Positions 1 to 17,600 of a DNA stretch of 35,716 nt are shown one piece after another. This DNA is from a virus. Within the stretch, counting starts at the first letter, position 1. Every line of letters begins with the position of its first letter. The notes below the pieces were generated by a model, which worked only from the letters and a program-made list of their open reading frames with translations, did no database searches and was not told where the DNA came from. The DNA is taken from the IMG/VR virus record IMGVR_UViG_3300020465_000052, positions 1 through 35,716 of that record, one strand, 5' to 3'. The translations under genes and the position numbers were made by a program.

Positions 1-206
1 GCGTTGACGACGTTGAGCACGTAGGCGATGCTTTTTATGGTCACTTCGACAGCGTTGAGGACTTCGTTGAGGACTACTTAGACCAGACAGGAGACTCACT
101 TCCAACTTGGGTGTGTGTAGACTATGAACGCACTTGGGACTCTGCACTTCGCTTCGACTTCGACTTTGACGAGGACAACGGCATTATGTGGATGTCTAAC
201 TGGTAG
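1..206 (+). CDS. ArdA-like antirestriction protein, C-terminal part (5' end outside window)
   Basis: The open frame enters from the left edge (first full codon at base 3) and ends at TAG 204-206, leaving 67 residues. The visible part is very acidic: VGDAFYGHFDSVEDF, then a DYLDQTG stretch, LPTWVCVDYERTWDSAL, and an end rich in Asp and Phe closing in MWMSNW. The pattern F-x-S-x-E-D-F-x-x-[DE]-Y, then P-x-[WY]-x-x-x-[DY]-x-E, resembles the C-terminal half of ArdA proteins. These are DNA-mimicking inhibitors of type I restriction enzymes, and ArdA-like genes occur in cyanophages. The acidity fits DNA mimicry. Base composition is clearly GC-richer than the rest of the window, with many GAC and TTC codons, which may mean separate ancestry. 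The family call rests on pattern memory; another acidic phage protein is possible. Confidence 0.5.
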   Translation, partial: VDDVEHVGDAFYGHFDSVEDFVEDYLDQTGDSLPTWVCVDYERTWDSALRFDFDFDEDNGIMWMSNW

Positions 207-654: not shown

Positions 655-817
655 CACTTATCACATATACTTAAGAGGAGAATGTTTGTTCAAAGATTTG
701 GATGAATATGAGTTTAAGATTATATGGGGTAGGATATATGAATCATACTTTAGAGATGAGTTAACTTATGAACAATTTGAATATAACAATGAAGTAGTAC
801 AAGATGCAAGTTATTAA
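647..817 (+). CDS. Small conserved cyanophage-type protein with IYL-x-G motif (56 aa)
   Basis: The chosen ATG (647) overlaps the previous gene by 8 bases. An upstream in-frame ATG at 620 would add nine mostly hydrophobic residues and overlap more, so it is less likely. The protein starts MTSTYHIYLRGECLFKDLDE, followed by YEFKIIWGRIYESY. The plan Y-x-I-Y-L-x-G, then F-x-x-L, then F-x-x-x-W-x-x-[LI] is one I recognise from small hypothetical proteins of T4-like cyanophages. The product of 2726-2893 has a similar plan and may be a distant paralogue. It overlaps the following oxygenase gene by 14 bases. Function is unknown. Confidence 0.75.
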   Translation: MTSTYHIYLRGECLFKDLDEYEFKIIWGRIYESYFRDELTYEQFEYNNEVVQDASY

Positions 818-1391
818 AGAAGAATTAAAGCCTTTCATTAATAGTAAACCAAAGAATAGAGAGTTGCCCCTTGAAGGTATAGAGATACACGATAATTTTC
901 TTACAGATCAATATGTAAAACATCTTCAGAGTATCTTTTTTAATCAATCATTCCCTTGGAATTACTCTCCGTTTGTTGGTTACAATGTTGAAGACACAAA
1001 GATATCAAAGGAAGAGAGAGATAATCATTTGTATCTAATACACAAGGTCTATGATGATCTTCGTCCTATAGAAGATTCCTTCCAAACCTTCGATCAATTT
1101 CTCCCCATACTCGAAGCATTGGAGGTTCGTTCCCTTGTACGAATACGTGCATTATTATATGTGAATCAAACTATATTAATTAAACACGAAAGTCATCAAG
1201 ATGCTCCGTATCCTATAAAGGCAGCATTATTATACTTAAACGATAGTAATGGATATACTGGTTTTGAAGATGGCACTAAGGTTGAAAGTGTTTGTAATAG
1301 ACTAGCATTATTTGATGGTTCTAAGCATCATCATAGTACAACGTGTACTGATGCAAAGGAACGTCTAGTAATTAATATCAATTATTTTTAA
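804..1391 (+). CDS. 2OG-Fe(II) oxygenase (first of a tandem pair)
   Basis: This 195-residue protein has the double-stranded beta-helix signature of 2-oxoglutarate/Fe(II) dioxygenases. The metal triad would be H131-x-D133 (HQD in KHESHQDAPYP) and a distal His in the HHH run 175-177, with H176 aligning to the paralogue. R187 is placed to bind the 2OG carboxylate. Between them is AALLYLNDSNGYTGFEDGT, the usual strand-turn core. Such enzymes hydroxylate or oxidise protein, nucleic acid or small-molecule substrates; the target here is unknown. Its end, S-T-T-C-T-D-x-K-x-R-x-x-x-x-x-N-Y-F, is nearly repeated in the next gene, showing duplication. It has about 25 extra N-terminal residues compared with that paralogue. 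It overlaps the preceding small gene by 14 bases. Confidence 0.85.
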   Translation: MQVIKEELKPFINSKPKNRELPLEGIEIHDNFLTDQYVKHLQSIFFNQSFPWNYSPFVGYNVEDTKISKEERDNHLYLIHKVYDDLRPIEDSFQTFDQFLPILEALEVRSLVRIRALLYVNQTILIKHESHQDAPYPIKAALLYLNDSNGYTGFEDGTKVESVCNRLALFDGSKHHHSTTCTDAKERLVININYF

Positions 1392-1393
1392 AA

Positions 1394-1413
1394 CACCTCG
1401 TTTAGCACCTCGT
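1394..1413. repeat. Direct repeat CACCTCGT x2 between the oxygenase genes
   Basis: CACCTCGT occurs at 1394-1401 and again at 1406-1413, within the 33-base gap between the two oxygenase genes. The gap is noticeably GC-richer than the coding DNA on either side. It could be a protein-binding site or a scar of the duplication; chance cannot be excluded at this length. Confidence 0.35.
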
Positions 1414-1424
1414 GGCTCGATATT

Positions 1425-1916
1425 ATGGAACACATTGTAAAAGACAATTTTCTTGAAAAGGATTATTTTAATTGGTTAAAGGAAGAGTTTCTAGAAGGAG
1501 ATCTTAAATGGTCTTATCAAGATGGAGTTGCAAAAGGTAGTGATGAACCTGATTATTACTTTATTCATAGTTTTTATAATCCCGATAACTTTGAAGTAGA
1601 AAGTCCTTGGTTTAATACTCACTTAGGTAAGTTGTGCCATGAGTTAGGTATTCGGGCGATTAAAAGAGCAAGATTAATAATGTATACTAATCAAGGTAAA
1701 CAGATTATTCATAAAAGACATAGAGACTTAGATTATGATCATACTGCTGCTCTTTTATATTTGAATACTAATGATGGTTTTACTGAATTAAATGATGGAA
1801 CTCGTATTGAAAGTATTGAAAATAGATTACTAATATTCAATGGTTTTGAAGAACATAGTAGTTCAACTTGTACTGATCAAAAGAGAAGAGTGCTGATATC
1901 ACTAAACTATTTTTAA
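1425..1916 (+). CDS. 2OG-Fe(II) oxygenase (second of a tandem pair)
   Basis: This 163-residue paralogue of the preceding gene keeps the full active-site set: H99-x-D101 (HRD in KRHRDLDYDH), distal H144 (in FEEHSSSTCTD) and R155 for 2OG. The segment AALLYLNTNDGFTELNDGT corresponds to the core strands of its neighbour, and both proteins end in NYF. It lacks the N-terminal extension of the first copy. Sequence outside the core has diverged, so the two may act on different substrates. The start follows an AT-rich ATT-ATG context with no Shine-Dalgarno. The TTGACA of the next promoter begins two bases after its stop codon. Confidence 0.85.
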   Translation: MEHIVKDNFLEKDYFNWLKEEFLEGDLKWSYQDGVAKGSDEPDYYFIHSFYNPDNFEVESPWFNTHLGKLCHELGIRAIKRARLIMYTNQGKQIIHKRHRDLDYDHTAALLYLNTNDGFTELNDGTRIESIENRLLIFNGFEEHSSSTCTDQKRRVLISLNYF

Positions 1917-1917
1917 G

Positions 1918-1946
1918 TTGACATTCGCTATATAATGCTGTATGAT
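1918..1946 (+). promoter_or_regulatory. Sigma70-type promoter for the glycosyltransferase-like gene
   Basis: A consensus TTGACA (1918-1923) is separated by exactly 17 bases from TATGAT (1941-1946). Transcription would start near 1953, about 16 bases before the ATG at 1969. A perfect TATAAT also lies at 1931-1936, but only 7 bases from the TTGACA, too close to pair with it. This is the best early-type promoter in the window. Confidence 0.7.
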
Positions 1947-1968
1947 ATGTTTGTAATTACACAACATT

Positions 1969-2724
1969 ATGGCAAAAGGATTTACTGTAAAAGCGAAATC
2001 TCCCGTCAAAGCAAAAGAACCTGAGTTCGATTATGATAAAGCACGAGAGATGGTCAAAGGTAAAACAGTCGTATTCTGTTTACCAGGAAGAGGAGTTTCA
2101 TATACTTTCTTAAAAGCATTTGTACAATTAAGTTTTGATTTAGTTCAAGCAGGTGCTTCTATACAAATAAGTCAAGACTATTCATCAATGGTTAACTTCG
2201 CACGTTGTAAGTGCTTAGGTGCTAATGTATTGAAAGGTCCTGATCAAGAACCTTGGCAAGGTCAACTACCATATGACTACCAATTATGGATTGATAGTGA
2301 CATTGTATTCAATACTGAGAAGTTCTGGCAGATTGTATTGATGGATCAGGACATCGCAGGGGGTTGGTATTGCACTGAGGATGGTAAGACTACATCTGTG
2401 GCACATTGGTTGGAGGAAGACGATTTCCGCACCAATGGTGGTGTTATGAACCACGAGACACTAGAGAGCATTTCTAAGCGTAAGAAGCCTTTTACTGTTG
2501 ACTACAGTGGGTTTGGTTGGTTATTAATCAAGAAGGGTGTATTTGAGCATAAAGAGATGCCTTATCCTTGGTTCGCACCAAAAATGCAGGTGTTTGAGTC
2601 TGGTGAGGTTCAAGATATGTGCGGAGAAGACGTTTCTTTCTGTCTAGATGCAAAAGAAGCAGGATTTGATATTTGGTGTGACCCTCGTGTACGTGTTGGA
2701 CACGAAAAAACAAGGGTAATATAA
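1969..2724 (+). CDS. Glycosyltransferase-like protein (GT-A fold)
   Basis: This 251-residue protein looks like a GT-A nucleotide-sugar transferase. It has an N-terminal strand-turn VVFCLPGRGVS (34-44), QDYSSMVNFAR (69-79), then a DxD-type metal/nucleotide motif LWIDSDIVF with DSD at 109-111, a GFGWLLIK acceptor-side segment (181-188), GED (219-221) as a candidate catalytic or metal acid, and a C-terminal VRVGHEK with H245. I associate this architecture with a protein commonly found near gene 25 in T4-like cyanophages. Acceptor and sugar are unknown; glycosylation of virion proteins is a guess from its position. It has its own sigma70-type promoter and an ATT-ATG start, and the next tiny gene starts two bases after its stop. 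Basic residues dominate the first 16 positions. Confidence 0.7.
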   Translation: MAKGFTVKAKSPVKAKEPEFDYDKAREMVKGKTVVFCLPGRGVSYTFLKAFVQLSFDLVQAGASIQISQDYSSMVNFARCKCLGANVLKGPDQEPWQGQLPYDYQLWIDSDIVFNTEKFWQIVLMDQDIAGGWYCTEDGKTTSVAHWLEEDDFRTNGGVMNHETLESISKRKKPFTVDYSGFGWLLIKKGVFEHKEMPYPWFAPKMQVFESGEVQDMCGEDVSFCLDAKEAGFDIWCDPRVRVGHEKTRVI

Positions 2725-2725
2725 G

Positions 2726-2893
2726 ATGGAAGTCTATAACATCTATCTCAATGGTCAATTAATACACGATAAGATAGGTAAGGATGCTATGTTTGATCTT
2801 ATGGAAGATTATGCTAAGGAATATTACCTAAATCGGGATAAAGAAGGTGTTATAGACCCCAAATCACTCAAAATAGAAACACAAAAACTTTAA
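2726..2893 (+). CDS. Small protein with IYL-x-G motif (55 aa), possible paralogue of 647-817
   Basis: ATG 2726 lies two bases after the glycosyltransferase-like stop codon, and the frame runs to TAA 2891-2893. The product starts MEVYNIYLNGQLIHDKIGKD, continues AMFDLMEDYAKEYYL, and ends charged. The opening [YV]-x-I-Y-L-x-G followed by an amphipathic helix is the same plan as the 647-817 product, so both may belong to one small cyanophage family. No membrane segment or known domain was seen. Function is unknown. Confidence 0.7.
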   Translation: MEVYNIYLNGQLIHDKIGKDAMFDLMEDYAKEYYLNRDKEGVIDPKSLKIETQKL

Positions 2894-2905
2894 TTTTACA
2901 TTATT

Positions 2906-3055
2906 ATGGCAGTTAAAACTAAAACAGGTGTATGGGGAAGTATTGAAATAGAACCAACTCCTAAAAAAACATCTCAAGGCAGAGGAAAGCATACAAAATA
3001 CTCTGCAACCTCTCGAAATAAGGCAAAAAAGAGGTATAGAGGTCAAGGAAAATAA
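2906..3055 (+). CDS. Small, strongly basic protein of unknown function (49 aa)
   Basis: ATG 2906 follows the previous stop by 12 bases in a TTATT-ATG context; the frame ends at TAA 3053-3055. The product opens MAVKTKTGVWGSIEIEP, then TPKKTSQGRGKHTKYS and ends NKAKKRYRGQGK. It is densely packed with Lys and Arg, suggesting nucleic-acid binding or a role bound to acidic partners. I recall similar short basic proteins ending in YRGQG near tail genes of cyanophages, but no function is established. It is the last gene before the terminator that closes this block. Confidence 0.75.
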   Translation: MAVKTKTGVWGSIEIEPTPKKTSQGRGKHTKYSATSRNKAKKRYRGQGK

Positions 3056-3062
3056 GAAAAAC

Positions 3063-3083
3063 CGCCCGAAAGGGCGTTTTTTT
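3063..3083 (+). terminator. Rho-independent terminator closing the early/middle block
   Basis: CGCCC (3063-3067), GAAA tetraloop (3068-3071), GGGCG (3072-3076), then seven T (3077-3083), with an A-rich left flank. It starts eight bases after the stop codon at 3055 and separates the upstream small genes from the late virion operon. Confidence 0.92.
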
Positions 3084-3152: not shown

Positions 3153-3554
3153 ATGCCTATTATACGAAAATCTAGGGCGTTTAAGGACATAAGTTTATCT
3201 TTTAAACCGCATCCTGTTACTAAAGACTTACCTGCTTTGGTGAATGAACGTGCGATTGTTAGATCAGTTCGTAATTTAATCGAAACTATACCAACAGAAA
3301 GGTTTTTTAGACCAGATATTGGAACAAATATTCGTGATAGTTTGTTTGAAAACTTTCATCCTACACTATTAACCATTATTGAAGACCAAATAAAAGAAAC
3401 TTTAGCAAATAATGAACCAAGAATTAATAATGTTAATGTTCAATTAGATCCATACATAGATCAAAATGCATTTGAGACAACAATATTTTTTGACATCATT
3501 GGATTAGACGTTCCAACTCAGTCATTCTCATTCCTATTAGAACCTACCAGATAA
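3153..3554 (+). CDS. gp25: Baseplate wedge protein gp25
   Basis: This 133-residue protein matches the length of T4 gp25 (132 aa) and the gpW/gp25 family, structurally related to lysozyme and to TssE of type VI secretion. Key landmarks are IVRSVRNLI (residues ~35-43), ERFFRPDIGTNIRDSLFE (~49-66) and the NNEPRINNV segment after the helix. T4 has ERRFHPEFGCDITRVLFE and FEPRIKILDV at the same places. gp25 joins gp6 in the inner baseplate wedge next to the tail tube and sheath. It is the first gene of the late unit and sits four bases upstream of gp6. The start has no clear Shine-Dalgarno. Confidence 0.95.
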   Translation: MPIIRKSRAFKDISLSFKPHPVTKDLPALVNERAIVRSVRNLIETIPTERFFRPDIGTNIRDSLFENFHPTLLTIIEDQIKETLANNEPRINNVNVQLDPYIDQNAFETTIFFDIIGLDVPTQSFSFLLEPTR

Positions 3555-3558
3555 TATA

Positions 3559-5604
3559 ATGGCGTTCACCCAGTACACAAGCCTAGATTTTGATGAAATA
3601 AAGGCACAAATTAAGGATTATCTTAGATCAAACTCTAATTTTACAGATTTTGACTTTGAAGGATCTAACTTTTCTGTCTTAATTGATACACTAGCATATA
3701 ACACTTATATTAATTCATTTAATGCTAATTTATTAGCAAATGAATCTTTCTTAGATTCAGCAACTTTGAGAGAGAATGTTATATCACTTGCTCGTAATAT
3801 AGGTTATGTACCCCGTTCAAAAACTGCTGCAAGGGCATCTATTTGGTTTACGGTAGAAATAGAGGGTGAAGATCCAAATGTCACTACAGAACGTTTAAAG
3901 AGGGTATACTTAAAGCCAGGTCTAGTGTGTGTAGGAAAGGCAAATGATACTTCATTTAGGTTTTCGGTAACAGAAACTCATTCTACACCAGCAATTATTA
4001 ATCGTATTGAAGATGGGAGAAATATCTATAGAGCACAGTTTGGATCTCCTACTGAACCTATAGAAATTGTTCAAGGAACATTTCTATCAAAAACTTTTGT
4101 ATATGTCGATAATCAAGATCAAAGATTTATTTTAGACAATCCTGATATTGATACTTCTACAGTAAAAGTTAATGTTGGTTCAAAAGATCAAGATGTTATT
4201 GGAGCACCTTTAGGTACTGAGTGGAAAAAGGTTGATAATATTGTAAACATTAATAAGAACTCTGAAATATATTTCTTACAAGAAATATCAGATGAAAAAC
4301 ATGAAATACTGTTTGGTGATGGAATAATAGGTAAATCATTAGGATCACAAGCTATTGGTAAAACAAATATGAGTGGTCAACCACTTAGTAATGATAAAAT
4401 AAGTGTTACCTATATTGTTTGTGATGGTGAAGAGGGTAATGGTGCTAGTCAATTTGATTTCCAAGGTGGATTCTTAGATGGTGATCCTGCACTTGTTGGG
4501 ACAAAAGTATTGAAACCATTCAATTCTGTAGCAGTTAATAATGTTAGAGCTGCTGCAAATGGTGCTGAAATAGAAAATCTTTCTTCAATAAAATATTATG
4601 CTCCTAGAATATATTCTGCTCAGTATAGAGCAGTTACTTCTAGAGACTATGAAGCGGTAATAGAAAGCATTTACCCTAGAACAGAATCTGTTGCTGTTGT
4701 TGGTGGTGAGGAGTTAGATCCACCTCAATTCGGTAAAGTGCAAATTAGTATTAAACCTAGAAATGGAACTTATGTTTCTGACTTTGATAAGTTGCAAATT
4801 AAAAATAAACTTAAAAATTATGCTGTTGCAGGTATAAATGCTGATATTGTAGATCTTAAAGTTCTATATGTTGAACTACATTCAACAATTTATTATAACA
4901 GTGCATTTAATTCTGATCCTGCTGGATTAAAAGCAAGAGTAACGAGTACTCTTGATACTTATGCAAATAATATTGATATTAATAAATTTGGTGGTAGGTT
5001 TAAGTATAGTAAGATTTTACAGTTAATTGATAGGGTTGATGATTCGATTACTTCTAATATTACTAAAGTGATTATTAGAAGGGATATGAAAGTTTTAATT
5101 GATCAATTCGCACAATATGAACTATGTTTTGGTAATAGATTCTATATTAATTCTCAAGGATTTAATATAAAGAGTACTGGATTTAAAATTAATGGTAGTA
5201 ATAATATTCTTTATCTAACTGATGTTCCAAATAAGAATGTAGATGGTTCTTTAGATGGTAGTGGTAAAGGTATTTTAAGTGCTATTACTAGAAATCAGAA
5301 GAATGAACTTAAAGTTATTGTTAAATCTGTAGGTACTGTTGATTATGTTAAAGGAGAAATACTATTAAATACTGTAAATATAACAGAAACAGTTGCTGCA
5401 AATAATTTAATTGAGATACAAGCATTTCCAGACTCTAATGATGTTATAGGATTGAAAGATCTCTATCTAACATTTAACACTTCTAATACTACGATAAATA
5501 TGGTTAAAGACGTTATTGCTTCTGGAGAAGATGTTTCTGGAGTTGTATTCTCAAGAGATTACTATACATCAAGTTATGCTAATGGGGACCTGGAGAGGAA
5601 ATAA
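3559..5604 (+). CDS. gp6: Baseplate wedge protein gp6
   Basis: This 681-residue protein is close in length to T4 gp6 (660 aa). The N terminus aligns well by eye: FTDFDFEGSNFSVLIDTLAY (27-46) corresponds to T4 FLDYDFEGSRLNVLCDLLAY, and LARNIGYVPRSKTAA (~77-91) to AQDNGYLPTSKSAA. The middle has the baseplate-J-type core, including RIYSAQYRAVTSRDYEAVIE (~350-369), matching T4 RETQQRCVTATDYDTFVSE. In T4, gp6 dimers form the continuous ring of the inner baseplate and drive its rearrangement during sheath contraction. It is transcribed between gp25 and gp7. The gene ends GAGAGGAAATAA, which overlaps the ribosome binding site of gp7. Confidence 0.95.
   Translation: MAFTQYTSLDFDEIKAQIKDYLRSNSNFTDFDFEGSNFSVLIDTLAYNTYINSFNANLLANESFLDSATLRENVISLARNIGYVPRSKTAARASIWFTVEIEGEDPNVTTERLKRVYLKPGLVCVGKANDTSFRFSVTETHSTPAIINRIEDGRNIYRAQFGSPTEPIEIVQGTFLSKTFVYVDNQDQRFILDNPDIDTSTVKVNVGSKDQDVIGAPLGTEWKKVDNIVNINKNSEIYFLQEISDEKHEILFGDGIIGKSLGSQAIGKTNMSGQPLSNDKISVTYIVCDGEEGNGASQFDFQGGFLDGDPALVGTKVLKPFNSVAVNNVRAAANGAEIENLSSIKYYAPRIYSAQYRAVTSRDYEAVIESIYPRTESVAVVGGEELDPPQFGKVQISIKPRNGTYVSDFDKLQIKNKLKNYAVAGINADIVDLKVLYVELHSTIYYNSAFNSDPAGLKARVTSTLDTYANNIDINKFGGRFKYSKILQLIDRVDDSITSNITKVIIRRDMKVLIDQFAQYELCFGNRFYINSQGFNIKSTGFKINGSNNILYLTDVPNKNVDGSLDGSGKGILSAITRNQKNELKVIVKSVGTVDYVKGEILLNTVNITETVAANNLIEIQAFPDSNDVIGLKDLYLTFNTSNTTINMVKDVIASGEDVSGVVFSRDYYTSSYANGDLERK
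5592..5599 (+). promoter_or_regulatory. Ribosome binding site of gp7
   Basis: GGAGAGGA lies eight bases before ATG 5608 and is embedded in the last codons of gp6. It is one of only two strong purine-rich sites in this window, most genes here starting without one. It fixes the gp7 start and couples it to gp6. Confidence 0.7.
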
Positions 5605-5607
5605 AGA

Positions 5608-8600
5608 ATGTTAGATATTGATACAAGAGTAAAATTAAATCAGATAATTGAAAACCAATTACCTGAATTTTTAAGATCTGATTTTCCTTTAGCAGAAGAT
5701 TTTCTTAAAACTTATTATCTTTCACAAGATTCTCAAGGTTCTTCTGGAGATATACTTAATAATTTTGACCAATATCTTAAGGTTGATAATTTAACATCTG
5801 ATGTTATTCTAGGTACTGCTACTTTAAGTGGTGAAATTGACGAAACATCTACCGAAATTACTCTATCATCAGAAACTAATCCATATCCAACAGATGGATA
5901 TCCTGCTGAATATGGATTATTAAGAATAAATGATGAAATTATTACATATACTAGTAAGACAGCAACTACTTTTAGTGGTTGTATTCGTGGTTTTAGTGGT
6001 GTAACCAAATATAATGTAGGTATTGCTACTTTTATTACTAGTCCAAATGGAGATCCAACTGAGTTTAGAAACTCTACTCCTGCAAGTCATGCTAATGGTG
6101 CAAAAGTTACTAACCTTAGTGTATTATTTTTACAAGAATTTTATAAGAAATTAAAGAAACAATTTTTACCTGGATTTGAAAATGTAGATTTTACTGACAA
6201 TCTTAATGTTGGTAACTTTTTTAAACACGCTAGATCTTTTTATCAATCAAAAGGTATAGAAGAATCTGTAAAAATACTATTCAGGGTTCTTTATGGTGTT
6301 GATCCTATTATCTTAGATTTAGAAGATCGGTTAATCAAACCTTCTGCTTCAGAATTTATTCGTAGAGAAGTTGTTATTGCAGAACCAATTAGTGGCGATC
6401 CTTCCAAATTGGTAGGACAAACAATCTATAAGTCTACAGATTTAGAGACTAATGCTTCAGTGTCTGAAGTTGAACCATTAACTAGAGAAGAAAAAGTATA
6501 TTATAAACTTTCTTTGTTTGTAGGATTTAGTGATAGGGATCTTATAGAAGGTACATTTACAATACCTGGTAAAACTAAAGTTCTAGAAGATTGTCCTGTT
6601 GGATTTTCAACAATATCAGTTGATTCTACTGTTGGATTTGGACACACAGGAACGATTATAAGCGGTACTAATTCGATAGATTATACATCTAAGTCTATTA
6701 ACCAATTCTACGGTTGTAGCGGCATTGAGGAGGCAATCAGCGTTGGTTCTGATATTAGATCTAATGAAGTTATTTTTGGATATGAAGATGGTGATCTTAA
6801 TCATAAGACTGAATTAAGAATTACAGGAGTTCTTTCAAAATATGAAGGATTAAGTGATATTTCTTTAATAAATGAAGGAGAAGATATATTTGTTAAAAAT
6901 GTTGGAGAATCTATACAAAATAAATCTAATCCAACTTATAAAGAAATATTTGCCAATTCTTTTATCTACAATACAAGTTGTAGATATCAAATTGAATCTA
7001 TTAATGGATCTACTTTTAAATTGTTAAGTATTATTGATAAATCAAGTTTAAGACTTAATGATAGTGTTGAAATCTTAGAAAGAAATAGCAATACAAAAGT
7101 TGCTGATGTTAATATCTCAGATTTAAATGTAGTTAACAATACTATAATAGTAAGTGGAGTATTTAATCTTAATTCATTAAAATTATATGATATTAGAAGA
7201 AAGATAAAAAAAGTATCGTCTTTTGGTGCAGAACTAAAAGAAGGTAATAATTCTTATATTGGAGATGTTTTAAACGTTTATGTTGATGGTGAAAAGGATG
7301 GATATGTAACATCTAACTCACTTCCAAGTTATGGATTAGATAATACAGTTAAAGTAAATAAGAATTCAATAACTTCTGGAGATGCTTCTGAATATGGAGT
7401 GTGGGACCCCAATTGCGATTTACCTCCAAATAGTCGCCCACTTGGTTTTGATGAATCGATTTCTTGTAGACAATTTAGAGCACCAGGACTTCGTAACGAA
7501 GATCAAGTAAGACAAATAGGATCTAGTGGAGAATTAATACGAGTAGATTCTTATGAATGGTTAACACTTGACAATCCTTCAACATTTATAACTGGTGAGT
7601 CTATAATTTATAGTTCTGATGAAGGATCTACAGACTATCCAAATTTAGAAACTGGAAAAATATATTATGTTGAAGTTAAAAGATCTGATAGAAGAAAAAT
7701 TAGATTATATAATTCAATAACACAAGTTGGATCAAATGAAGATTTTATTGCAATTGGTGTTTGTAATATAACCGATTCTCATACATTAACTAAAGAGTCT
7801 CAATATGGAAAGAAACTAAGTGCAAATAAAATATTAAGAAAATTCCCATTATCACAAGATTTGTATATTGCTAGTAAGGATGAGACTCCTACTAGAGAAA
7901 TTGGAATATTAATTGATGGTGTAGAAATTAAAACACCAATATCAGAAGATTATATGTATTATGGACCAATTGAGTCTATTGAAGTGTATAATGGTGGAGA
8001 AGATTATGATGTAGTAAATCCACCAAAATTAAAGATTCAAGATAGTCATAATTCTGGAGTTAATGCATTTGTAGAACCAGTTATTACTGGATCTGTTAAG
8101 AATGTATTTGTAGATCCATCTGATTTTGATATTGATAGTGTTGTTTCTGTTTCTATAGAAGGTGGTAATGGTAGTGGATGTATATTACAACCTATTGTAA
8201 GACAAAGATATAGGGAAATAGAATTTGATAGTAGAGATACATTTTTTGCAGGTGGTATTTCTATTGAAGATGAAACAATAACATTTAAGACTAATCACAA
8301 CTTAGAAACAGGGGAAACTGTTTATTATAACAGTAATGGACATCCAGAGATGGGTACTGGTCCAGCTTATGATACTACAAATACTGCAACGGGAACATTA
8401 TCAAATGGTGCTCCATATGTGGTACGTAAAGTAAACGAAAAGACAATTACATTATATGATAAGTTTAATGATGCAATAGGTATAGCAGGTATTAATACTA
8501 TTGGATTTTCAACTTCAACTAAAGCATCTGGTACTCATAAGTTTAGAACTGGTCTTAAAAATTACTTATTTGATATTAAAATAATAGAACCTGGAAGTGA

Positions 8601-11600
8601 TTATACTTATAAAAAAATTAATGTTAATCCATCAGGTATTTCAACACATCATTCAAAAATAGATTATAATAATCATGGATTTGAAGATGGTGATTTAATT
8701 CATTATAAGAATACTGGAATTAGTGAATGGCAAACTACTTTTGGTCCTGCTTATAGTGTTAATCCAGTAATGAGAATAAGACTTCAAATTGATACTGGAG
8801 TTTATACTTTTACAGATACTAATACTGTTGTTGGATCTAATATAACTGGAGAACCACTTGTAGTCGGTAGTAAAAGATATAGTCTTGGTGCAGAAGCAAT
8901 TAATACTGGTGATGCAATCATATATGAGATACAGGTAGAAGATCTTGTAAATGAAAGATCAATTGATGGATTGGATTTAACACATTCTTATAATGTGTTA
9001 AAGATTGATAATCATTCATTCAGATTATCTGATGCTGGAGTGAAAGAAGCAACATCAGATTTAAATTACATTAGGCGTGAATATGTCGATTTAAATACAG
9101 TAGGAATAGGAACTCAAACATTCACTTATCCAGATATTGTAGTAAAGGCAGATATAACTTATAGTGGTATTACATCACAAACAAATTTAGAAAATTATCA
9201 GTACACTTTCACACCTGTTGTTACTGGAAGTATAACTGATGTTAATATCTATGAACATGGAACAAAATATGGAACTACTGTTTTAAATCATCATAAAGAT
9301 CCTATAATTAGCATACAAAATGGTAAGGAAGGGGAATTAGGTTTAAGTGTAGTTGATGGGAAAATAGTAGATGTTCAAGTATTAAACAAAGGAAAAGAAT
9401 ATTATTCTTTACCAGATATTGTTGTAGAAACTACTGGAATAACAACTAGTGGTGTTTATGGTAATGGTGCTGTTCTTAGACCAGTAATTAAAGATGGTAG
9501 ATTGGATGATGTTATTGTAACTAATCCTGGAATTGGATATACTGCTGGTCAAGTTAATGCATATCCCGTTTCTAGAGGTATTAATGGACTACTTGAGAGT
9601 AGAATCAAACGTCATATTATTGATAATATAAACAGGGAAAGTAATTATGGATTAGAATCTATAACTGGTGATCTTAATTTAAGTGTAATTGGTTATAATC
9701 AAACTATTGCTAATGCTTTCGGTGACGATGGAACAAAACATTCACCTATAATTGGATGGTCTTATGATGGACACCCAATATATGGTCCTTATGGATTTAC
9801 TGATCCAACTAAATTAGGTCCAATTGTTGGTATTGTAACCTCTGGATATGTCTTAAATCAGTCTGGAATATCTACTTTATCTGATAATGGATTAAGACCA
9901 GACTCTGATGAATATTCACCAGGATATTTTACTACTGATTGGATTTATGATGGTAGTGGACAGCTTGACAAACATAATGGTAGATATTGTAAAACACCAG
10001 AGTTTCCTAATGGTGTTTATGCTTATTTTGCTGGAGTAAGTACTAGTTTACAAACTAACAAATTAGTACCAAAATATCCATACTTTATTGGTAATACTTA
10101 TCGTTCACCCTTTATATCATCAAACACAACTTTAACTCAAGATTTTGACTTTAATTCGTCTAATCTTTCAAGAAACACTTTTCCATATAAAGTTGGTGAT
10201 CAATTTGCAAATAACGATTTCATTATTGAATCAAATGAATTTTTAAGACAACTTAGCACTGTTGAATCTGTAACATCAGGTATAGTTGATGAAATAAAAG
10301 TTTTAGATGGTGGTAAAAATTATAAAGTTGGTGATTTTACAGTATTTGATAATAAAGGAACTAATGGTTCTGGTATTAGAGGATTGGTTAAATCTATAGC
10401 AGGTATTGGAGTTTCCAGTATTGAAACTCAGGTTGATAAATTTGAGAATGCAGTTTTTGTATGGGAATCCGAAAATGAAGTGTCTGCAACTTATTATCCT
10501 TTCATTGAGGTAAATGATGGAGATTTTGTTGCTATTTCAGGTCTTAGTAGTTCTATTGTAGGATTAACAGATTCATTTAGTGTTGGTGTTAAGACTGATA
10601 CTATTGGATTAGCAAAAACAATGTCTTACAACAACCTTGTAACTGGTGATGTTGAAGATATTTACGTTAATATCATACCAGAAACAGTATCTATTGGTTC
10701 TTCTTTAAGAATTAATAATGATGAAATTGTTCAAGTATTGAATAAGTTTGATCTTGGATCAATTTTAAGGGTTAAAAGGTTTGGTGTAGGTGCTGCACAT
10801 AGTTATAGTTCTAGAATAGATGTTTTAAATACAAAAATTACTTTACCAGCTAGGGTTAAAAGGTTTGAATCTGATCTTAATCATAAATTATTTTTTAATC
10901 CTAAACAATCTGTTGGTTTAGGTCTTACAGTTGGTGGAGGTATAAGTGTTGATTACACTATAGGTGAAACAACTACAGAAGTTCCTATTCCAACTAGAGC
11001 AATATATTTACCAAATCATCCATTTAAAACTGGAGAAAAATTAACATTTAGGAAAAAGGGAACAGCATCTTCTTTACTTGTTGGTGAATCTGAAACTACA
11101 AATGACTTATTTAATTTACCTGATGTAACTAGTAATACTTTTGATGTATATGCAATTAATAAGGGTCAAAATTATGTTGGACTTGTTACTGTAGTGGGTG
11201 CAGCATCAACTTCAGAAGGATTATTTTTCCACGGAAATGGTAGTGATGATTTTGAATATTCTTTAGAAACAAAAAAAGATCAAGTTATTGGTGATATTGA
11301 TAAGATTGTTTCAACAATTACAACTAAAATAGGTGCTGCTGATACAACAACTCATAATATACAAACTGGAGATATTGTTTCCTTGACGGTTGTTCCTAAT
11401 ACAATTGTTGGATTAGGTAGTACTGCCCCATTAACATTATCATTTAATGAGGAGTTTCAAAAATTAGTAGTTAATGAGATATCATTTGCAAATACTGATA
11501 TTGATACAAGTAATAGTACAATTACAATTAATAATCACGGATACAAAACAGGTGATAGAGTTCTTTATCGTAGTAGTCAACCTGCAACTGCTAAAGAAGT

Positions 11601-14600
11601 CTTTAGTATTTTAACAGAAGATTTAAAGGGTTGTTATTTTGTAAGTGAAGTAGATTCTAATACAATACAATTGGGTAAAACCTTATTAGATGTTAAAACA
11701 GATCCACCACAATTAATTGATCTTAAAACTACTGGTGGTGCTGTTCATACATTTGGTTTAATTAATCCACAAATTGAAGTTGTTAAAAAGTCTAGATTGA
11801 CATTTGGTGTTGGTAGTTCTACTTTAGAAGGGTATGATTTAAAATTCTATTATGATAAAGATTTTAAAAATGAGTTTGTTAGTGTTGGTGTTGGTCAAAC
11901 CTTTAACGTAATTAGTTCTAATGGAATTATTGGTATTGGTTCTACAGCTACAAGATCTGTCGCTTATACAGATTCAACCCCCACTCGATTATATTATGCT
12001 TTAAGTAAAGGTGGATATATTAGTACAGCAGATAGATTAGTTGAAAATAATTCAGAAATAAAGTTTGTTGATAGTGCATATAGTGGTACTTATAATGTAC
12101 TTGGAATAACTTCAAATACCTTCCAAATATCACCTTATACTGTTCCTTCAGTATTAACATATAAAGAAGATCAATGTGAAATAATCAAATATTCAACTGA
12201 ATCTAAAACCGTAATTGGTCCTATTGATAGTGTAAAGATAATATCTAAGGGTTATAATTATAAATCATTACCAACATTTGATTATGTTTCTAGTGATACT
12301 GGAGAAAATGCTAATATTGTTGCATTGTCAACATCAATAGGTAGAGTAAATGAAATTAGAATTATTGATATTGGATATGAATATGCATCTGATAAAACAT
12401 TAAGTCCAGAAGCATTTGTTCCTCCTGTAATTAGAATTGATAATCTTGATACTGTTAAGGAAGTTAAAGTAGTTGATGGTGGTAAAGAATATTTGAGTCC
12501 ACCTGATATTGTTGTTTATGATCCAGATATAGATGAAATTGTTGATACTACTTCATTAGTAGCTAAGACACCTAATCAATCTATATCTGAAGTTGAAGTA
12601 ATAGCACCAATACAAGGTCTTAATTCAATTAATCATAGAATTATTGCAATTAACAATTCAAATGGAGTTGGTATTAATTCTATTACTGGTGGTGGAACAG
12701 GCATAGTTACTTGTATTCTTAATACACCTATTAATGGATTTGCTGTTCCACCATTTAGTATTGGTGACGATATTTTTGTTGAAGGTATTGAATTATTTGG
12801 TGAAGCAGGTATTGGAACTCAAAGTAATGTTGGTTCTGGTATATCATCTGAAGGTGATGGTTATAACTCCGAAAATTATCAATATAGATTCTTTAAAGTT
12901 GATGATTTTATTAATACAAATCCAGCAATATTAAAATATAATTTAATTGGATTAACTACAAATCCAGGTATTGCTAAAACTTTCCAATCTGGTTATGCAA
13001 ATATTATTAATAGATCAAAATATCCAGTTTTAGATTCTATACAGGAAAGAGGAAAATATGCTATTAACGAACCATTATATGTTTTATTTAATGGTCAATT
13101 TGTTGAAAGAGATTTGAAAGTAGTAGATGCTAGAGATGATTACATTAAAATAGATGGCACATATCAGTTAAAAATTGGTGATAGAATTAAAGGTAGTGTA
13201 AGCGATGTTACCTCTTCAGTAATTAATCTTACTGAAAATAAAGCTAGATTTAGAGTTAGTTATTCTAACCGTCAAGATCAAGGATGGGTTGATAATACGG
13301 GTAAAATTAGTGAAGACCAACAGGTAATTCCAAATAATGATTATTATCAGAACTTATCATATTCTGTTAAGAGTAGTATTGCTTGGGATACTTTTGTAGA
13401 TTCTTTGAATAGAACTGTTCATCCTGCAGGATTAAAGAACTTTGCAGACGTTAGTATTGGATCTACAGTAAATGTTTCAACTTCTTATGGATCAACTACT
13501 AATAATGTTGTCATTTTAGATGTTTTAAATGAAAAAAGAGTAGATACTATTAATAATTATGATCTTGCTCTTGATTATGATGCTAGAGATAGTAAGTCAA
13601 AATTTGTACAATTTGAAAATAAAAAATTAACCGATTTTACTAAATGTAAAACTAATAGAGTTCTTATTCATGATGATATTAGTCCTTTATTCTCAAGTAA
13701 AGGAATACAAGATTTATTTACTGAAATAGAAGAACTAAAATCTAAATTTGGAAAATATTTAATACAAATTATAGATCCTGATACTTATGATGTTCAGATT
13801 AGTGATTTAGTTGTGTTAACAACAACTAATGATGCATTTCTTATTGAAAAGACTAGTGATTTTACTAATATGAAGTTAGGTGATTTTACTGCAGATTCAG
13901 ATTCATTTAACAGAAAGACATTAAGATTTGATCCAACTGAAAAATATGATAAGGATCATGATATAAAAGTTCTTAAAACTTCATTTAATACAAGTCTAGG
14001 TTCTACTGGAACTCAAAGTATTGGTTCTATAGATCTATTTAATACTAATATTGGTATTGGTACAACAACAATTGGATTTACTACCACAACTATTGCAGAA
14101 TTTGATGTTAATGATTTTAATGGATTTACTGCTAGTGTATTATTACAGGATGATATTACGAAGGAAATAAGTTACAATGAAGTTATTGTTGATTTTGATG
14201 GAACTAATACTTATTATTCTGAGATTTACAGTGATAGTTTAACATTTTCTTATAGTTCTAGTAATATAGGAGTACTTACAGCAAAATATGATTCTGGAAA
14301 AGTATACTTTAATTGTAAAAATGATACTATCAGAAAAATAAATGTTAATGCTTCAATTATTAAATTTGGTACAACCTCTGCAGGAATAGGAACTTATAGA
14401 TTTTCAGTACCTGGACAACCAGTAGGTGCAGAAAGGAGTGTAAGGTTGGAATCAACTTATAATACTGGAACATCAACTCCAATACCATTAACAACTATTA
14501 ATAAGAATTGGGATAGTTCACTTAAATCATTAGTTAGGATCTCTAGTGGTACAGATTCTGCTATTCATGAAGTAGTGGTTCTACAGGATGAGGGACTGGC

Positions 14601-17600
14601 AACGACTATTCAATATCCATATACTGGTGCTTCTAATACTGGTATAGGTACTTTTGGTGCTATTACGTCTGGATCTGATATAACAATTAATTTCTATCCA
14701 GATGCTAGTCAAACTAATTTAGTTAAAGTTCAGGGATATAATGAGATTTTCTATACTCCAAACGATTTTGCAAATGAACCACCAGATTTAGTTGTTGGTC
14801 CAGTAGATAAAAAAGTATTTTTATCTTCATATGATGGTGTTAATGGAAGTAGAGCAAATAAGATTAATTTTAATCTAAAATACAAAAATACTCCAATTTA
14901 CCATAAAATTTTTAACCCTGCAGATTCAACTCAATTAGATCTTGCTACTGGTACATTTACCTTACCAAATCATTTCTTTAATACTAATGAAGAGTTAACT
15001 TATATACCACAATCAACCTTTATAGGAATTGGTGCTACTGCTGTTAGTATTGGTACTACAGAGATTAATTCTGGAGTTACTACTGATATAATGCCTTCTA
15101 CGGTTTATGCTAAGGTTATTAGCGAAAATAAAATCCAATTATTCAGTAAGAAGGAATATATTACTACTGGTGCAGCAATAACATTTACTGGTGTTGGTGA
15201 AGGTAATGCACACTCAATTGAAATGGGAGATAAGTTGAGTAAAACTGTTATTGGTCTTGATGGTATAGTTCAACAACCAATTACATTTACTGCAATTAAA
15301 CATACATTACAATCTAATATTGGTGCAGCAACATCTCAGTTTGTACTTAGTGGTATTAGTTCTGTTCAACCAAGAGATGTTTTGAAGATTGATAATGAAT
15401 ATATGAAGATTGAGCAGGTTGGATTCTCAAGTCTTCCTGAAGGAACTATTAACGATGCTACAGATGTTGCTATTGGAATATGTACATTACCTGTTGTTAG
15501 GGTTCGTAGAGGTTCTCTTGGAATAGGTGCAACACCACATAATGCTGCATCTACTGCTAGAGTTAATAGAGGTTCTTTCAACATTGTTGATAGTACTGTA
15601 TGGTTCTTAGACCCACCTAAAGGTAATACAAGAGAAAGAAGAAGTGTAACTAATTTGCCATATGTTAGAGCAGAGTTTAGTGGAAGAACATTCTTAAGAC
15701 AAAATTATGATACCAATATGGTATTTGATGATATTTCAGATCAGTTTACTGGAATAGGTAGAACTTATACCTTAACTAGAAATGGTGCTGATGTATTAAC
15801 TGGTGTTAGTAGTGCTATTGGTAATGGTATTCTGTTTATTAATGGAGTATTCCAAACACCATTAACTGTTAATAATGCAGGAAATAATTATGAGTTTACT
15901 GCAAATACTAATGCTGGAATAACAAGTGTTGTTTTCACAGGTATTAGTTCTGCAAATGGCGAGATGATGCAGTCTGAGTTTGATATTAATCAGAATCAAT
16001 TACCAAGAGGTGGTCTGATTGTTTCTATGGGATCAACTCCTGGACTTGGATATGCTCCTCTTATTGGTGCTAAAACTAAATTAGATTTGACAGATAATAG
16101 TAATCTATTTGCTGCTGGTTCAATTAGTAATGTTGTTGGTGTTGGAACTTCTTCCAAATATACTTTAGGTATTCAAACTGCTGCTTATGACTTTAAGACT
16201 GGAATCATAACAGTTACGACTAATAATGTTCATGGATTTGATTTAGCATATCCTAAGACTGTTAAGTTAAAAGGTTTAGAGTTTGCTTGCCCAACTAATG
16301 CTGTTGGAACACCTACTGGAAACACGCAATATGATCCATCAACAGGTAATTTAACTATAGAAATTGTTGGTCATGGACTTACAAATGGTGATGCAGTTAA
16401 GTTAGAAAAAGAATCAATTACATTTAGTTGTGGTTATAATGGTGCTACTGGATCTGCTGCTGAAAAAGCATATCCAAGAGAAACTGATCCTGCTTATGAT
16501 ACGTATCTAACAGTTTCTAACGTAACTAATGATACATTTAGAGTTAATGTTTTATTAGGAACAACACCAACTAATACAGATGCACATACGTTTGTTTCAG
16601 CAACTGCTAATTGTGTCCGTACTCTTAACTATGTTGGATTAACTACTACTATTTTCCAAGACCACGAACGTCCATTAAATCTAACAGGTATTGTATCTGA
16701 AAGAACATTTGAGGTAAATGCTGGTATTTGTACTATTAACCATATTTTCCAAAATAGTCCAAATGCATATGCTTATGAGTTCTATGGAGATTTAACTGCA
16801 GGATCAGGATATCGCAGTCCAGTTGCAGTTGGTGTTACTGATATAGAATTTGCACATAAGTTTGTAACTTCTGCATCTAATGCAATTACAGCAGATAATT
16901 CAGATCAATATACACCTACAGCAGCAAATTATGATTCTGCAACTGGTGATTTAATTCTGACTGTAGACCATAATCTTAAAGCAGCAACAAGACATACAGT
17001 AGAGACTGCTTCATATGTTGCTTCTACTGGTGTATTAACTGTAACTATAACTGATCATGGATTTAGCAATAATGATTGGGTTAAACTTGACGATCATTCA
17101 ATATCATTCACCTGTGATATGGATGGTGATGCTTCTGTTCATTCATATCCTCGTCCATCAGATCCTTATAGTGGTAAATGGTTACAGGTTGCTAATAAAA
17201 CTAATGATACATTCGAGTTGAATGTAGGATCATCACCACAGGTACAATTTACACCATCTGATGCTAAGTATGATCCAGTTACAGGTTTAATGGAATTGAC
17301 TATTGGATCTCATACATTGAGTCCAAATACTAGCGTAAAACTTGCTACAAACTCTATAGGATTTACTTGTGATGTTGATAATAACACCACTACAAAGACA
17401 TATCCTCGTTCATCTGATCCTTATAATAATACTGCTATTAAAATTCAGTCTGTAACTTCTACAACTATTACCTTACAAGTTCTTTCTGCACAACCATCCA
17501 CCAATATTACAAAACATACTTTTGTAAGTGCAAATCCAAATGCAGTAACTACTGGTGGAAATTATGCACACGATTTTGATTCATCAACACCAAGTGGTTT

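What the first reader, a model, noticed from the sequence alone, without database searches (positions are those of the whole stretch)
804..2724. Two 2OG-Fe(II) oxygenases next to a glycosyltransferase-like gene, upstream of the tail genes
Both oxygenases keep the HxD...H...R set, so both look active. A hydroxylase plus glycosyltransferase pair could install glycosylated hydroxy-residues on virion proteins or modify DNA. The huge Thr/Ser/Asn-rich tail proteins are candidate substrates.
Basis: inference. Interest (0 to 1): 0.5.

Follow-up and report, generated by a model that had tools for sequence, protein, structure and literature searches.

The report
Baseplate-linked glycosyltransferase beside two phage hydroxylases
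A marine cyanobacterial virus carries a sugar-adding enzyme that is strongly conserved beside its tail-baseplate genes, next to two oxygen-using hydroxylases that look like changeable neighbours rather than an obligate partner; together they hint that these viruses may decorate their own tails with sugars.

Summary
ORFs 804-1391 and 1425-1916 are tandem 2OG-Fe(II) oxygenases: the HxD...H...R set is invariant in 40 aligned members, and the model of the first has a prolyl-hydroxylase/PHD2 fold. Databases label the family "DNA endonuclease V", almost certainly wrongly. ORF 1969-2724 (phrog_1574, no named function) models as a GT-A glycosyltransferase with a DxD motif, closest to LH3 (accessory domain), STIV A197, mimivirus R699 and Mnn9.

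The proposed pair is not a conserved unit. The glycosyltransferase precedes gp25 in 73/73 and 72/74 assessable contigs of two sets; a 2OG gene lies within 1 kb upstream in only 9/48 and 2/52. DSL-LC03 and S-TIM5 keep it with no match to four 2OG profiles.

It instead goes with one baseplate type and a distal glycan cluster: GT25 in 16/17 and GT11 in 15/17 carrier genomes, 0/7 in non-carriers. This is confounded by descent: 15 of 21 core genes show the same split. Most likely it helps glycosylate tail or baseplate proteins, while the oxygenases are exchangeable hot-spot genes that may add acceptors in this lineage. Activity and substrate are inferred, not shown.

The parts
804..1391 (+). 2OG-Fe(II) oxygenase 1 (195 aa, phrog_274; PHD2/prolyl-4-hydroxylase fold; H131, D133, H176, R187)
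1425..1916 (+). 2OG-Fe(II) oxygenase 2 (163 aa, phrog_274, tandem paralogue of the first)
1969..2724 (+). GT-A glycosyltransferase (251 aa, phrog_1574 / T4-GC 102), DxD at residues 109-111, conserved N-terminal MAKGFTVKA
2726..2893 (+). small ORF (55 aa, phrog_3252) just after the glycosyltransferase
2906..3055 (+). small basic ORF (49 aa, phrog_516)
3063..3083 (+). terminator-like hairpin (stem-loop 3063-3076) followed by seven T, between the cluster and gp25
3153..3554 (+). gp25 baseplate wedge, the constant downstream neighbour
3559..5604 (+). gp6 baseplate wedge (type found with the glycosyltransferase)
5608..20868 (+). gp7-like giant baseplate protein (5,086 aa, Ser+Thr 19.4%), one candidate substrate

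Best explanation
ORF 1969-2724 is a metal-dependent (DxD) GT-A glycosyltransferase, a near-constant gene of one large clade of T4-like cyanomyoviruses (the P-SSM2-type baseplate clade). It most likely transfers a sugar from a nucleotide donor to hydroxyl groups on a tail, baseplate or fibre protein, as one step of a phage-encoded glycan pathway whose other genes (GDP-sugar synthesis, GT11 and GT25 glycosyltransferases) lie elsewhere in the genome. The two oxygenases are Fe(II)/2-oxoglutarate hydroxylases of prolyl-hydroxylase fold, recruited into the variable region between gp46 and gp25. They hydroxylate a protein or small molecule and may add acceptor hydroxyls for the glycosyltransferase in this lineage, but the glycosyltransferase is kept without them in most relatives examined. 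Shown: sequence families, conserved catalytic residues, predicted folds, synteny, co-occurrence. Inferred: activity, donor, acceptor, and any link between the two enzyme types.
For: Fold and catalytic residues. Synteny: gp25 lies downstream in 73/73, 72/74 and 17/20 assessable loci (the first two sets share some contigs). The glycosyltransferase is closer to the window's than gp25 and gp6 are in 126/126 loci (median identity 85.4% against 54.5% and 56.4%; some loci repeat a contig). Glycosyltransferase presence is one split of the gp6 tree (13 with, the window included, 7 without; support 99/98; 0/500 shuffles as low); absence in the seven was confirmed by profile. GT25 in 16/17 carriers and 0/7 non-carriers; GT11 in 15/17 and 0/7. 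tblastn in the phage collection finds 105, 98 and 103 records for the glycosyltransferase, GT25 and GT11, each with 83 'Synechococcus' and 6 'Prochlorococcus' records. In S-CAM7, where the glycosyltransferase lies 114 kb from gp6, it stands about 13 kb downstream of GT25 and 16 kb of GT11, with tail-fibre and collagen-repeat genes between.
Against: The co-occurrence is confounded by descent: 15 of 21 core genes give the same carrier/non-carrier split in a 5-versus-5 comparison, so it may be one event. S-TIM5 has the glycosyltransferase without GT25, GT11 or a gp6 match; S-SKS1 lacks GT11. A terminator-like hairpin separates the cluster from gp25 here, arguing against a shared transcript. The LH3 and R699 matches are to the accessory, not the catalytic, domain (for LH3 the boundary is recalled). 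S-SCSM1's authors file its fucosyltransferase and glycosyltransferase genes under cell-wall synthesis and modification (PMC9602691, passages). No glycan on a cyanophage virion was seen in any call.
Confidence: 0.45

Rival explanations
1. Host take-over genes: the oxygenases modulate 2-oxoglutarate or host proteins, and the glycosyltransferase and glycan cluster remodel host lipopolysaccharide (for example to block superinfection). Position beside gp25 is only hot-spot location.
For: Sullivan et al. 2010 (PMC3037559, passages) name the gp46-gp25 interval a hot spot and propose a 2OG/NtcA role; S-SCSM1 authors read its sugar genes as cell-wall genes (PMC9602691, passages). Other auxiliary genes (ferredoxin, purM, S-adenosylmethionine decarboxylase, CP12, tryptophan halogenase) lie between the glycosyltransferase and gp25 in relatives.
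Against: The glycosyltransferase is not exchanged like its neighbours: it keeps its place in 73/73 and 72/74 contigs and is more conserved than gp25 or gp6.
Confidence: 0.27
2. One reading: the oxygenases hydroxylate residues of tail proteins and the glycosyltransferase then glycosylates the new hydroxyls, as in collagen hydroxylysine glycosylation.
For: Prolyl-hydroxylase fold beside a glycosyltransferase whose closest solved folds include LH3, R699 and COLGALT1. In P-SSM2-like contigs 2OG genes of more than one family sit on both sides of it (L036, L119, L037), and P-SSM2 has 3 within 1 kb against 0.24 expected.
Against: No general linkage: 2OG within 1 kb upstream in 9/48, 2/52 and 4/20 loci. 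Across 17 carrier genomes 2OG genes within 2.5 kb are 6 against 4.5 expected, half of them in P-SSM2. Two carriers match no 2OG profile used. The matched LH3/R699 part is the accessory domain.
Confidence: 0.15
3. DNA hypermodification of the base-J kind: the oxygenase hydroxylates a base and the glycosyltransferase glucosylates it.
For: Only the pairing of a 2OG oxygenase with a GT-A enzyme (base-J analogy recalled; no call tests it).
Against: The best folds listed for the oxygenase are mostly protein hydroxylases; no TET/JBP-like family among the Pfam matches of 40 members at E<=1; the glycosyltransferase persists without the oxygenases.
Confidence: 0.03
4. The 'DNA endonuclease V' label is right and the two ORFs are UV-repair enzymes.
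For: Annotation in many records and the PHROG name.
Against: Invariant HxD...H...R and a prolyl-hydroxylase fold; 12 of 40 members match 2OG-FeII_Oxy_3 at E<=1 (best 1.8e-5), and no pyrimidine-dimer glycosylase profile is among the 18 families listed.
Confidence: 0.02

Closest known systems
Prochlorococcus phage P-SSM2 locus PSSM2_104-111 (Salacisavirus)
   Same: Same order: phrog_274-type oxygenase, further 2OG gene, phrog_1574 glycosyltransferase (88.8% identical), small ORF, gp25, gp6, giant gp7
   Different: P-SSM2 has one strong phrog_274 gene here plus 2OG genes of two other Pfam families (PF13759, PF13640), one of them between the glycosyltransferase and gp25; the window has two phrog_274 genes and none in that interval
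Pseudomonas putida prolyl-4-hydroxylase / human PHD2 (2OG-Fe(II) protein hydroxylases)
   Same: Fold (Z 14.7-14.8, rmsd 2.9-3.1, 158-159 aligned) and HxD...H...R
   Different: 16-19% identity over aligned residues; substrate unknown; SnoN, a small-molecule enzyme, is within 1 Z (13.9)
Lysyl hydroxylase LH3/PLOD3, mimivirus R699 and COLGALT1 (collagen hydroxylysine glycosylation)
   Same: GT-A fold (LH3 Z 17.2, R699 16.5, COLGALT1 14.3) and 2OG hydroxylase genes nearby
   Different: The match to LH3 and R699 is to the accessory domain; separate ORFs, not a fusion; no PLOD chain in the profile search of PDB sequences at E<=10
STIV A197 viral GT-A glycosyltransferase
   Same: Z 16.9, rmsd 2.6, 163 aligned, 22% identity; top of three non-significant profile matches in the PDB, E 0.25
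   Different: Archaeal virus; shorter; sequence match not significant
Mycobacteriophage glycosyltransferases suggested to glycosylate a capsid protein
   Same: Phage-encoded glycosyltransferase for which virion glycosylation is suggested (PMC11256854, search listing and start of abstract only)
   Different: Sequence similarity not significant (E about 2-3); the baseplate seat described here was not looked for in mycobacteriophages

Membership tests
2OG-Fe(II) dioxygenase superfamily | HxD...H iron-binding triad and 2OG-binding Arg | tested here: met
   Invariant in 40 aligned members, both window ORFs included
2OG-Fe(II) dioxygenase superfamily | double-stranded beta-helix fold | tested here: met
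   ORF 1 model pLDDT 90.5; PHD2 Z 14.8, P4H Z 14.7; ORF 2 not modelled
2OG-Fe(II) dioxygenase superfamily | Pfam profile over its curated cut-off (a convenience, not a defining feature of the superfamily) | tested here: not met
   ORF 1 scores 14.9 bits to PF13640 (cut-off 27); ORF 2 only PF05118 at 12 bits (cut-off 22.6). 12 of 40 members match PF13640 at E<=1, best 1.8e-5
2OG-Fe(II) dioxygenase superfamily | Fe(II)/2OG-dependent turnover | not testable with these tools
   needs biochemistry
T4 DNA endonuclease V (denV) | pyrimidine-dimer glycosylase sequence profile | tested here: not met
   No such family among Pfam matches at E<=1 for either ORF or the 40 members; the predicted fold is that of prolyl hydroxylases
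GT-A glycosyltransferase | GT-A fold | tested here: met
   Model pLDDT 86.4; the 50 solved entries listed (Z 11.5-17.2) are nearly all entries named as glycosyltransferases or LH3
GT-A glycosyltransferase | DxD metal-binding motif | tested here: met
   Both Asp invariant in 12 aligned sequences and at least 90% conserved in 23
GT-A glycosyltransferase | recognised Pfam family | tested here: not met
   No Pfam family at E<=10 for the window protein; Glycos_transf_2 in 1 of 23 relatives at 0.14
PLOD/LH3 lysyl hydroxylase-glycosyltransferase | glycosyltransferase and hydroxylase on one chain | tested here: not met
   Separate ORFs; not neighbours in most relatives examined
PLOD/LH3 lysyl hydroxylase-glycosyltransferase | homology to the catalytic glycosyltransferase domain | tested here: inconclusive
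   Best structural match covers the accessory domain of LH3 and R699; no PLOD sequence match
TET/JBP base oxygenase | TET/JBP profile match | tested here: inconclusive
   Not among Pfam matches at E<=1; the structural list cannot exclude it

The most novel reading that the evidence does not exclude
Cyanomyoviruses of the P-SSM2 type run a phage-encoded protein-glycosylation pathway that builds a fucosylated glycan (GDP-fucose genes, GT11, GT25) on baseplate, tail or fibre proteins through the phrog_1574 glycosyltransferase; in the lineage of this window the clustered prolyl-hydroxylase-like oxygenases create hydroxy-amino-acid acceptors first, a split-gene bacterial-virus counterpart of collagen hydroxylysine glycosylation.
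Probability: 0.1. Interest if true: 0.8.

Novelty: new member of a known kind. Interest (0 to 1): 0.42.

Why it matters
If virions of these ocean phages are glycosylated by their own enzymes, glycan state would become a testable determinant of adsorption, host range and stability, and a family with no assigned function (phrog_1574; 105 phage records by tblastn) would gain a role. The work also shows that a label carried by many cyanophage records, 'DNA endonuclease V', almost certainly sits on a 2OG-Fe(II) oxygenase, which takes a supposed UV-repair gene out of those inventories and adds to their oxygenase count.

Tried and rejected
Obligate oxygenase-glycosyltransferase pair: rejected as a general rule by synteny and genome-wide counts. 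Three of the five 2OG genes within 1 kb of the glycosyltransferase in 17 genomes belong to P-SSM2; without it the count is 2 against 1.9 expected.

Collagen-like substrate: PF01391 over its cut-off in 5 of 17 carrier genomes (a sixth below it) and 0 of the 1 non-carrier examined; no Gly-X-Y run longer than 3 repeats in eight window proteins. Suggestive only in S-CAM7.

Giant gp7 as the reason for the glycosyltransferase: non-carriers also have giant proteins after gp6 (Syn19 19.4 kb, P-HM1 13.3 kb).

A co-inherited virion substrate: the 577-aa divergent neighbour in DSL-LC03 shares only a stretch of about 25 residues with S-TIM5 and S-CAM9; the S-TIM5 structural neighbour has a long match only in L133 (69%), with short weak matches in L132 and three genome pieces. 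Rejected. The wider screen gave the sugar genes, a 187-aa ORF and a 1,370-residue S-TIM5 ORF piece (28-35% identity, in 5 of 6 carriers, 0 of 5 non-carriers); the last two were not pursued.

Independence of the co-occurrence: 15 of 21 core-gene trees show the same split, so the Fisher values (2e-5, 1e-4) must not be read as independent evidence. Carriers and non-carriers were picked by me to span the tblastn rankings, not at random.

Record-by-record overlap of GT25 with the glycosyltransferase was compared by eye for 60 of 98 GT25 rows against truncated listings. Seven rows were not seen among glycosyltransferase rows: four single-cell contigs, one uncultured phage, S-PRM1 and B23; their status is unknown.

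Fold-search absences: no T4 DNA glucosyltransferase or TET/JBP enzyme was among the rows shown; this excludes nothing.

Literature: none of the ten searches listed a paper whose title or abstract start speaks of glycosylated cyanophage virions; the library is partial and I saw passages of five papers only (PMC3037559, PMC9602691, PMC10665884, PMC11838735, PMC9546862). Whether S-SCSM1's glycosyltransferase was among its 45 virion proteins was not visible in the passages.
Full report
WHAT IS THERE. The window is a 35,716-base virus record from a T4-like cyanomyovirus close to P-SSM2 in this region (gp6 tree). Three + strand ORFs stand at the stated place: 804-1391, 1425-1916 and 1969-2724. They are followed by two small ORFs (2726-2893, 2906-3055), a terminator-like hairpin at 3063-3076 with a run of seven T, then gp25, gp6, a 5,086-residue gp7-like protein and gp8.

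THE OXYGENASES. Both match phrog_274, which PHROGs and many GenBank records call DNA endonuclease V. Forty aligned members, down to 18% identity, keep H131, D133, H176 and R187 without exception: the iron triad plus the 2OG-binding arginine (chemistry recalled). The model of the first (pLDDT 90.5) matches PHD2 (Z 14.8, rmsd 2.9, 159 aligned), a Burkholderia 2OG oxygenase (14.8) and Pseudomonas putida prolyl-4-hydroxylase (14.7); the small-molecule enzyme SnoN follows at 13.9, within 1 Z. The fold favours a protein hydroxylase but does not prove it. No dimer-glycosylase profile matched at E<=1, so the endonuclease V name is almost certainly wrong. By themselves the two window proteins reach no Pfam cut-off; 12 of 40 members match 2OG-FeII_Oxy_3 at E<=1, best 1.8e-5.

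THE GLYCOSYLTRANSFERASE. It matches phrog_1574, function unknown, and two glycosyltransferase PHROGs only weakly; no Pfam family appears at E<=10. Twelve aligned sequences keep both Asp of a WIDxD motif and an EDVxFC...GHEK region near the C-terminus. The model (pLDDT 86.4) matches LH3 residues 293-521 (Z 17.2, rmsd 3.3, 191 aligned), STIV A197 (16.9), mimivirus R699 (16.5), Mnn9 (16.5) and COLGALT1 (14.3); two further glycosyltransferase entries stand at 13.9 and 13.8, the rest at 12.7 and below. Foldseek ranks the same proteins first (LH3 2.2e-8, Mnn9 4.7e-8, A197 1.4e-7), with GalNAc-T2 at 1.9e-6, so the margin is moderate. LH3, A197, R699 and Mnn9 are tied. Among predicted viral structures the best are unnamed phage proteins, with a Megavirus procollagen-lysine dioxygenase at 4.9e-9. 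R699 glucosylates galactosyl-hydroxylysine of collagen (PMC9546862, passages), but the part that aligns, 234-455, is essentially its accessory domain, which follows a linker containing residue 244 (PMC11838735, a preprint, passages); that domain is not required for LH3's activity (PMC9546862). That LH3 293-521 is the accessory domain is recalled. The resemblance to collagen enzymes is of fold, not of shown function.

IS IT A PAIR? Neighbourhoods were scored in three sets. Set B: 76 of the 80 loci of a divergent query, the other four being in set A already; some contigs recur. Set C: 20 of the 105 phage records, picked to span the identity range. gp25 follows in 73/73, 72/74 and 17/20 assessable loci; misses include L132, L133, S-CAM7, S-TIM5 and the 735-kb phage LR756501. 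A 2OG gene ends within 1 kb upstream in 9/48, 2/52 and 4/20, and lies between the glycosyltransferase and gp25 in 10/73, 2/72 and 3/17. From the oxygenase side, 14 of the 29 loci L103-L131 show the glycosyltransferase in the fetched stretch and 15 do not (L105 and L115 are one contig, and short contigs may hide it). In 17 carrier genomes (set C without two single-cell fragments and LR756501) all 2OG genes found with four profiles were placed: 5 lie within 1 kb of the glycosyltransferase against 2.15 expected, 6 against 4.5 within 2.5 kb, 7 against 8.4 within 5 kb; P-SSM2 supplies three each time. DSL-LC03 and S-TIM5 match none of the four profiles at E<=0.001. The oxygenase clustering is thus a feature of the P-SSM2-like lineage. 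Sullivan et al. describe the gp46-gp25 interval as a hot spot and record 2OG genes in 14 of 16 genomes (PMC3037559, passages); S-SCSM1 has 24 (PMC9602691, passages).

WHAT THE GLYCOSYLTRANSFERASE TRAVELS WITH. In 126 of 126 loci it is closer to the window's copy than gp25 or gp6 are (medians 85.4, 54.5 and 56.4%; some contigs repeat). On a gp6 tree carriers (13, the window included) and non-carriers (7) form one split, support 99/98, 0 of 500 shuffles as low; absence in the seven was checked by profile. S-CAM7, where the gene lies 114 kb from gp6, still has this gp6 type (57% identity to the window). Screening P-SSM2, S-TIM5, DSL-LC03, S-SM2, S-CAM9 and S-T4 against Syn19, S-PM2, P-HM1, S-H38 and P-SSM7 for genes in at least 5 of 6 and 0 of 5 returned, besides the glycosyltransferase, a NAD-dependent epimerase (GDP-fucose-synthase-like by recall; some matches only 24-29%), a GT11, a GT25, a 187-residue ORF and a large S-TIM5 ORF piece. 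Over 24 genomes GT11 is in 15/17 carriers and 0/7 non-carriers, GT25 in 16/17 and 0/7; S-TIM5 lacks both and S-SKS1 lacks GT11. In the phage collection the three queries hit 105, 98 and 103 records with equal numbers of Synechococcus- and Prochlorococcus-named records, 83 and 6; overlap by record was compared only for listed rows. In S-CAM7 the displaced glycosyltransferase stands downstream of GDP-mannose dehydratase, GDP-fucose synthetase, GT11, adenylylsulfate kinase and GT25 (GT25 ends 12.7 kb before it), with a tail-fibre gene directly after GT25 and a collagen-repeat gene in between.

HOW FAR THAT GOES. Fifteen of 21 core genes give the same carrier/non-carrier split. The association may therefore be a single ancestral event and is not independent proof of a pathway. 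What remains is strong retention of the glycosyltransferase across a deep clade whose neighbouring genes turn over, its constant seat at the baseplate, and the S-CAM7 relocation near fibre and sugar genes.

MECHANISM, STEP BY STEP. Shown by sequence or model: intact oxygenase residues; GT-A fold with DxD; synteny; co-occurrence. Inferred: Mn2+/nucleotide-sugar transfer to a protein hydroxyl; a tail or baseplate protein as acceptor; elongation by the distal glycan genes; hydroxylation by the oxygenases as an optional extra acceptor in the P-SSM2 lineage. The leading rival is host-surface or host-metabolism modification, which the passages seen favour for the sugar genes and oxygenases. DNA modification and UV repair are unlikely.

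VERDICT. It is a new member of a known kind (phage glycosyltransferases linked to virion genes), with an open and testable question: are these ocean phages glycoprotein-tailed?

Noticed in passing
window 804-1916; phrog_274 records: The name 'DNA endonuclease V/denV' is attached to a 2OG-Fe(II) oxygenase family in many cyanophage records and in PHROGs.
   Followed up: yes
window 1969-1995 and relatives (alignments A1, A3): The glycosyltransferase starts with a strongly conserved MAKGF(T/K)V(K/Q)A-like peptide followed by a variable linker; it is missing in S-TIM5 and the 735-kb phage LR756501. It could be a docking or localisation tag.
   Followed up: no
L330 (S-CAM7 161-183 kb): The displaced glycosyltransferase sits downstream of GDP-fucose genes, GT11, GT25, an adenylylsulfate kinase (possible sulfated glycan) and collagen-repeat fibre genes.
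   Followed up: partly
L132:3775-5005: An IMG/VR contig carries two tandem paralogues of the glycosyltransferase, without gp25 nearby.
   Followed up: no
L012:4001-4900 (P-TIM68): Its glycosyltransferase is 299 aa, with an extra stretch of roughly 45-50 residues after the DxD region compared with its relatives.
   Followed up: no
window 3-206: The left edge holds the end of an ArdA-like anti-restriction protein (phrog_36653, E 1.5e-6; Pfam ArdA only 0.052).
   Followed up: no
window 3063-3083: A hairpin plus T run separates the cluster from gp25; a script found such sites somewhere in 70 of 177 glycosyltransferase-gp25 intervals (contigs repeat; median 391 bases before gp25) and in 0 of 177 mononucleotide shuffles.
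   Followed up: partly
L111-L113:3356-4504 and L119:1101-2173: Tandem phrog_274 oxygenases recur in other contigs, also without the glycosyltransferase in the fetched stretch (L111-L113).
   Followed up: no
L214:217-839 (S-PM2): A 2OG oxygenase gene is annotated overlapping tRNA-Thr and a pseudo-tRNA on the same strand, so one annotation is doubtful.
   Followed up: no
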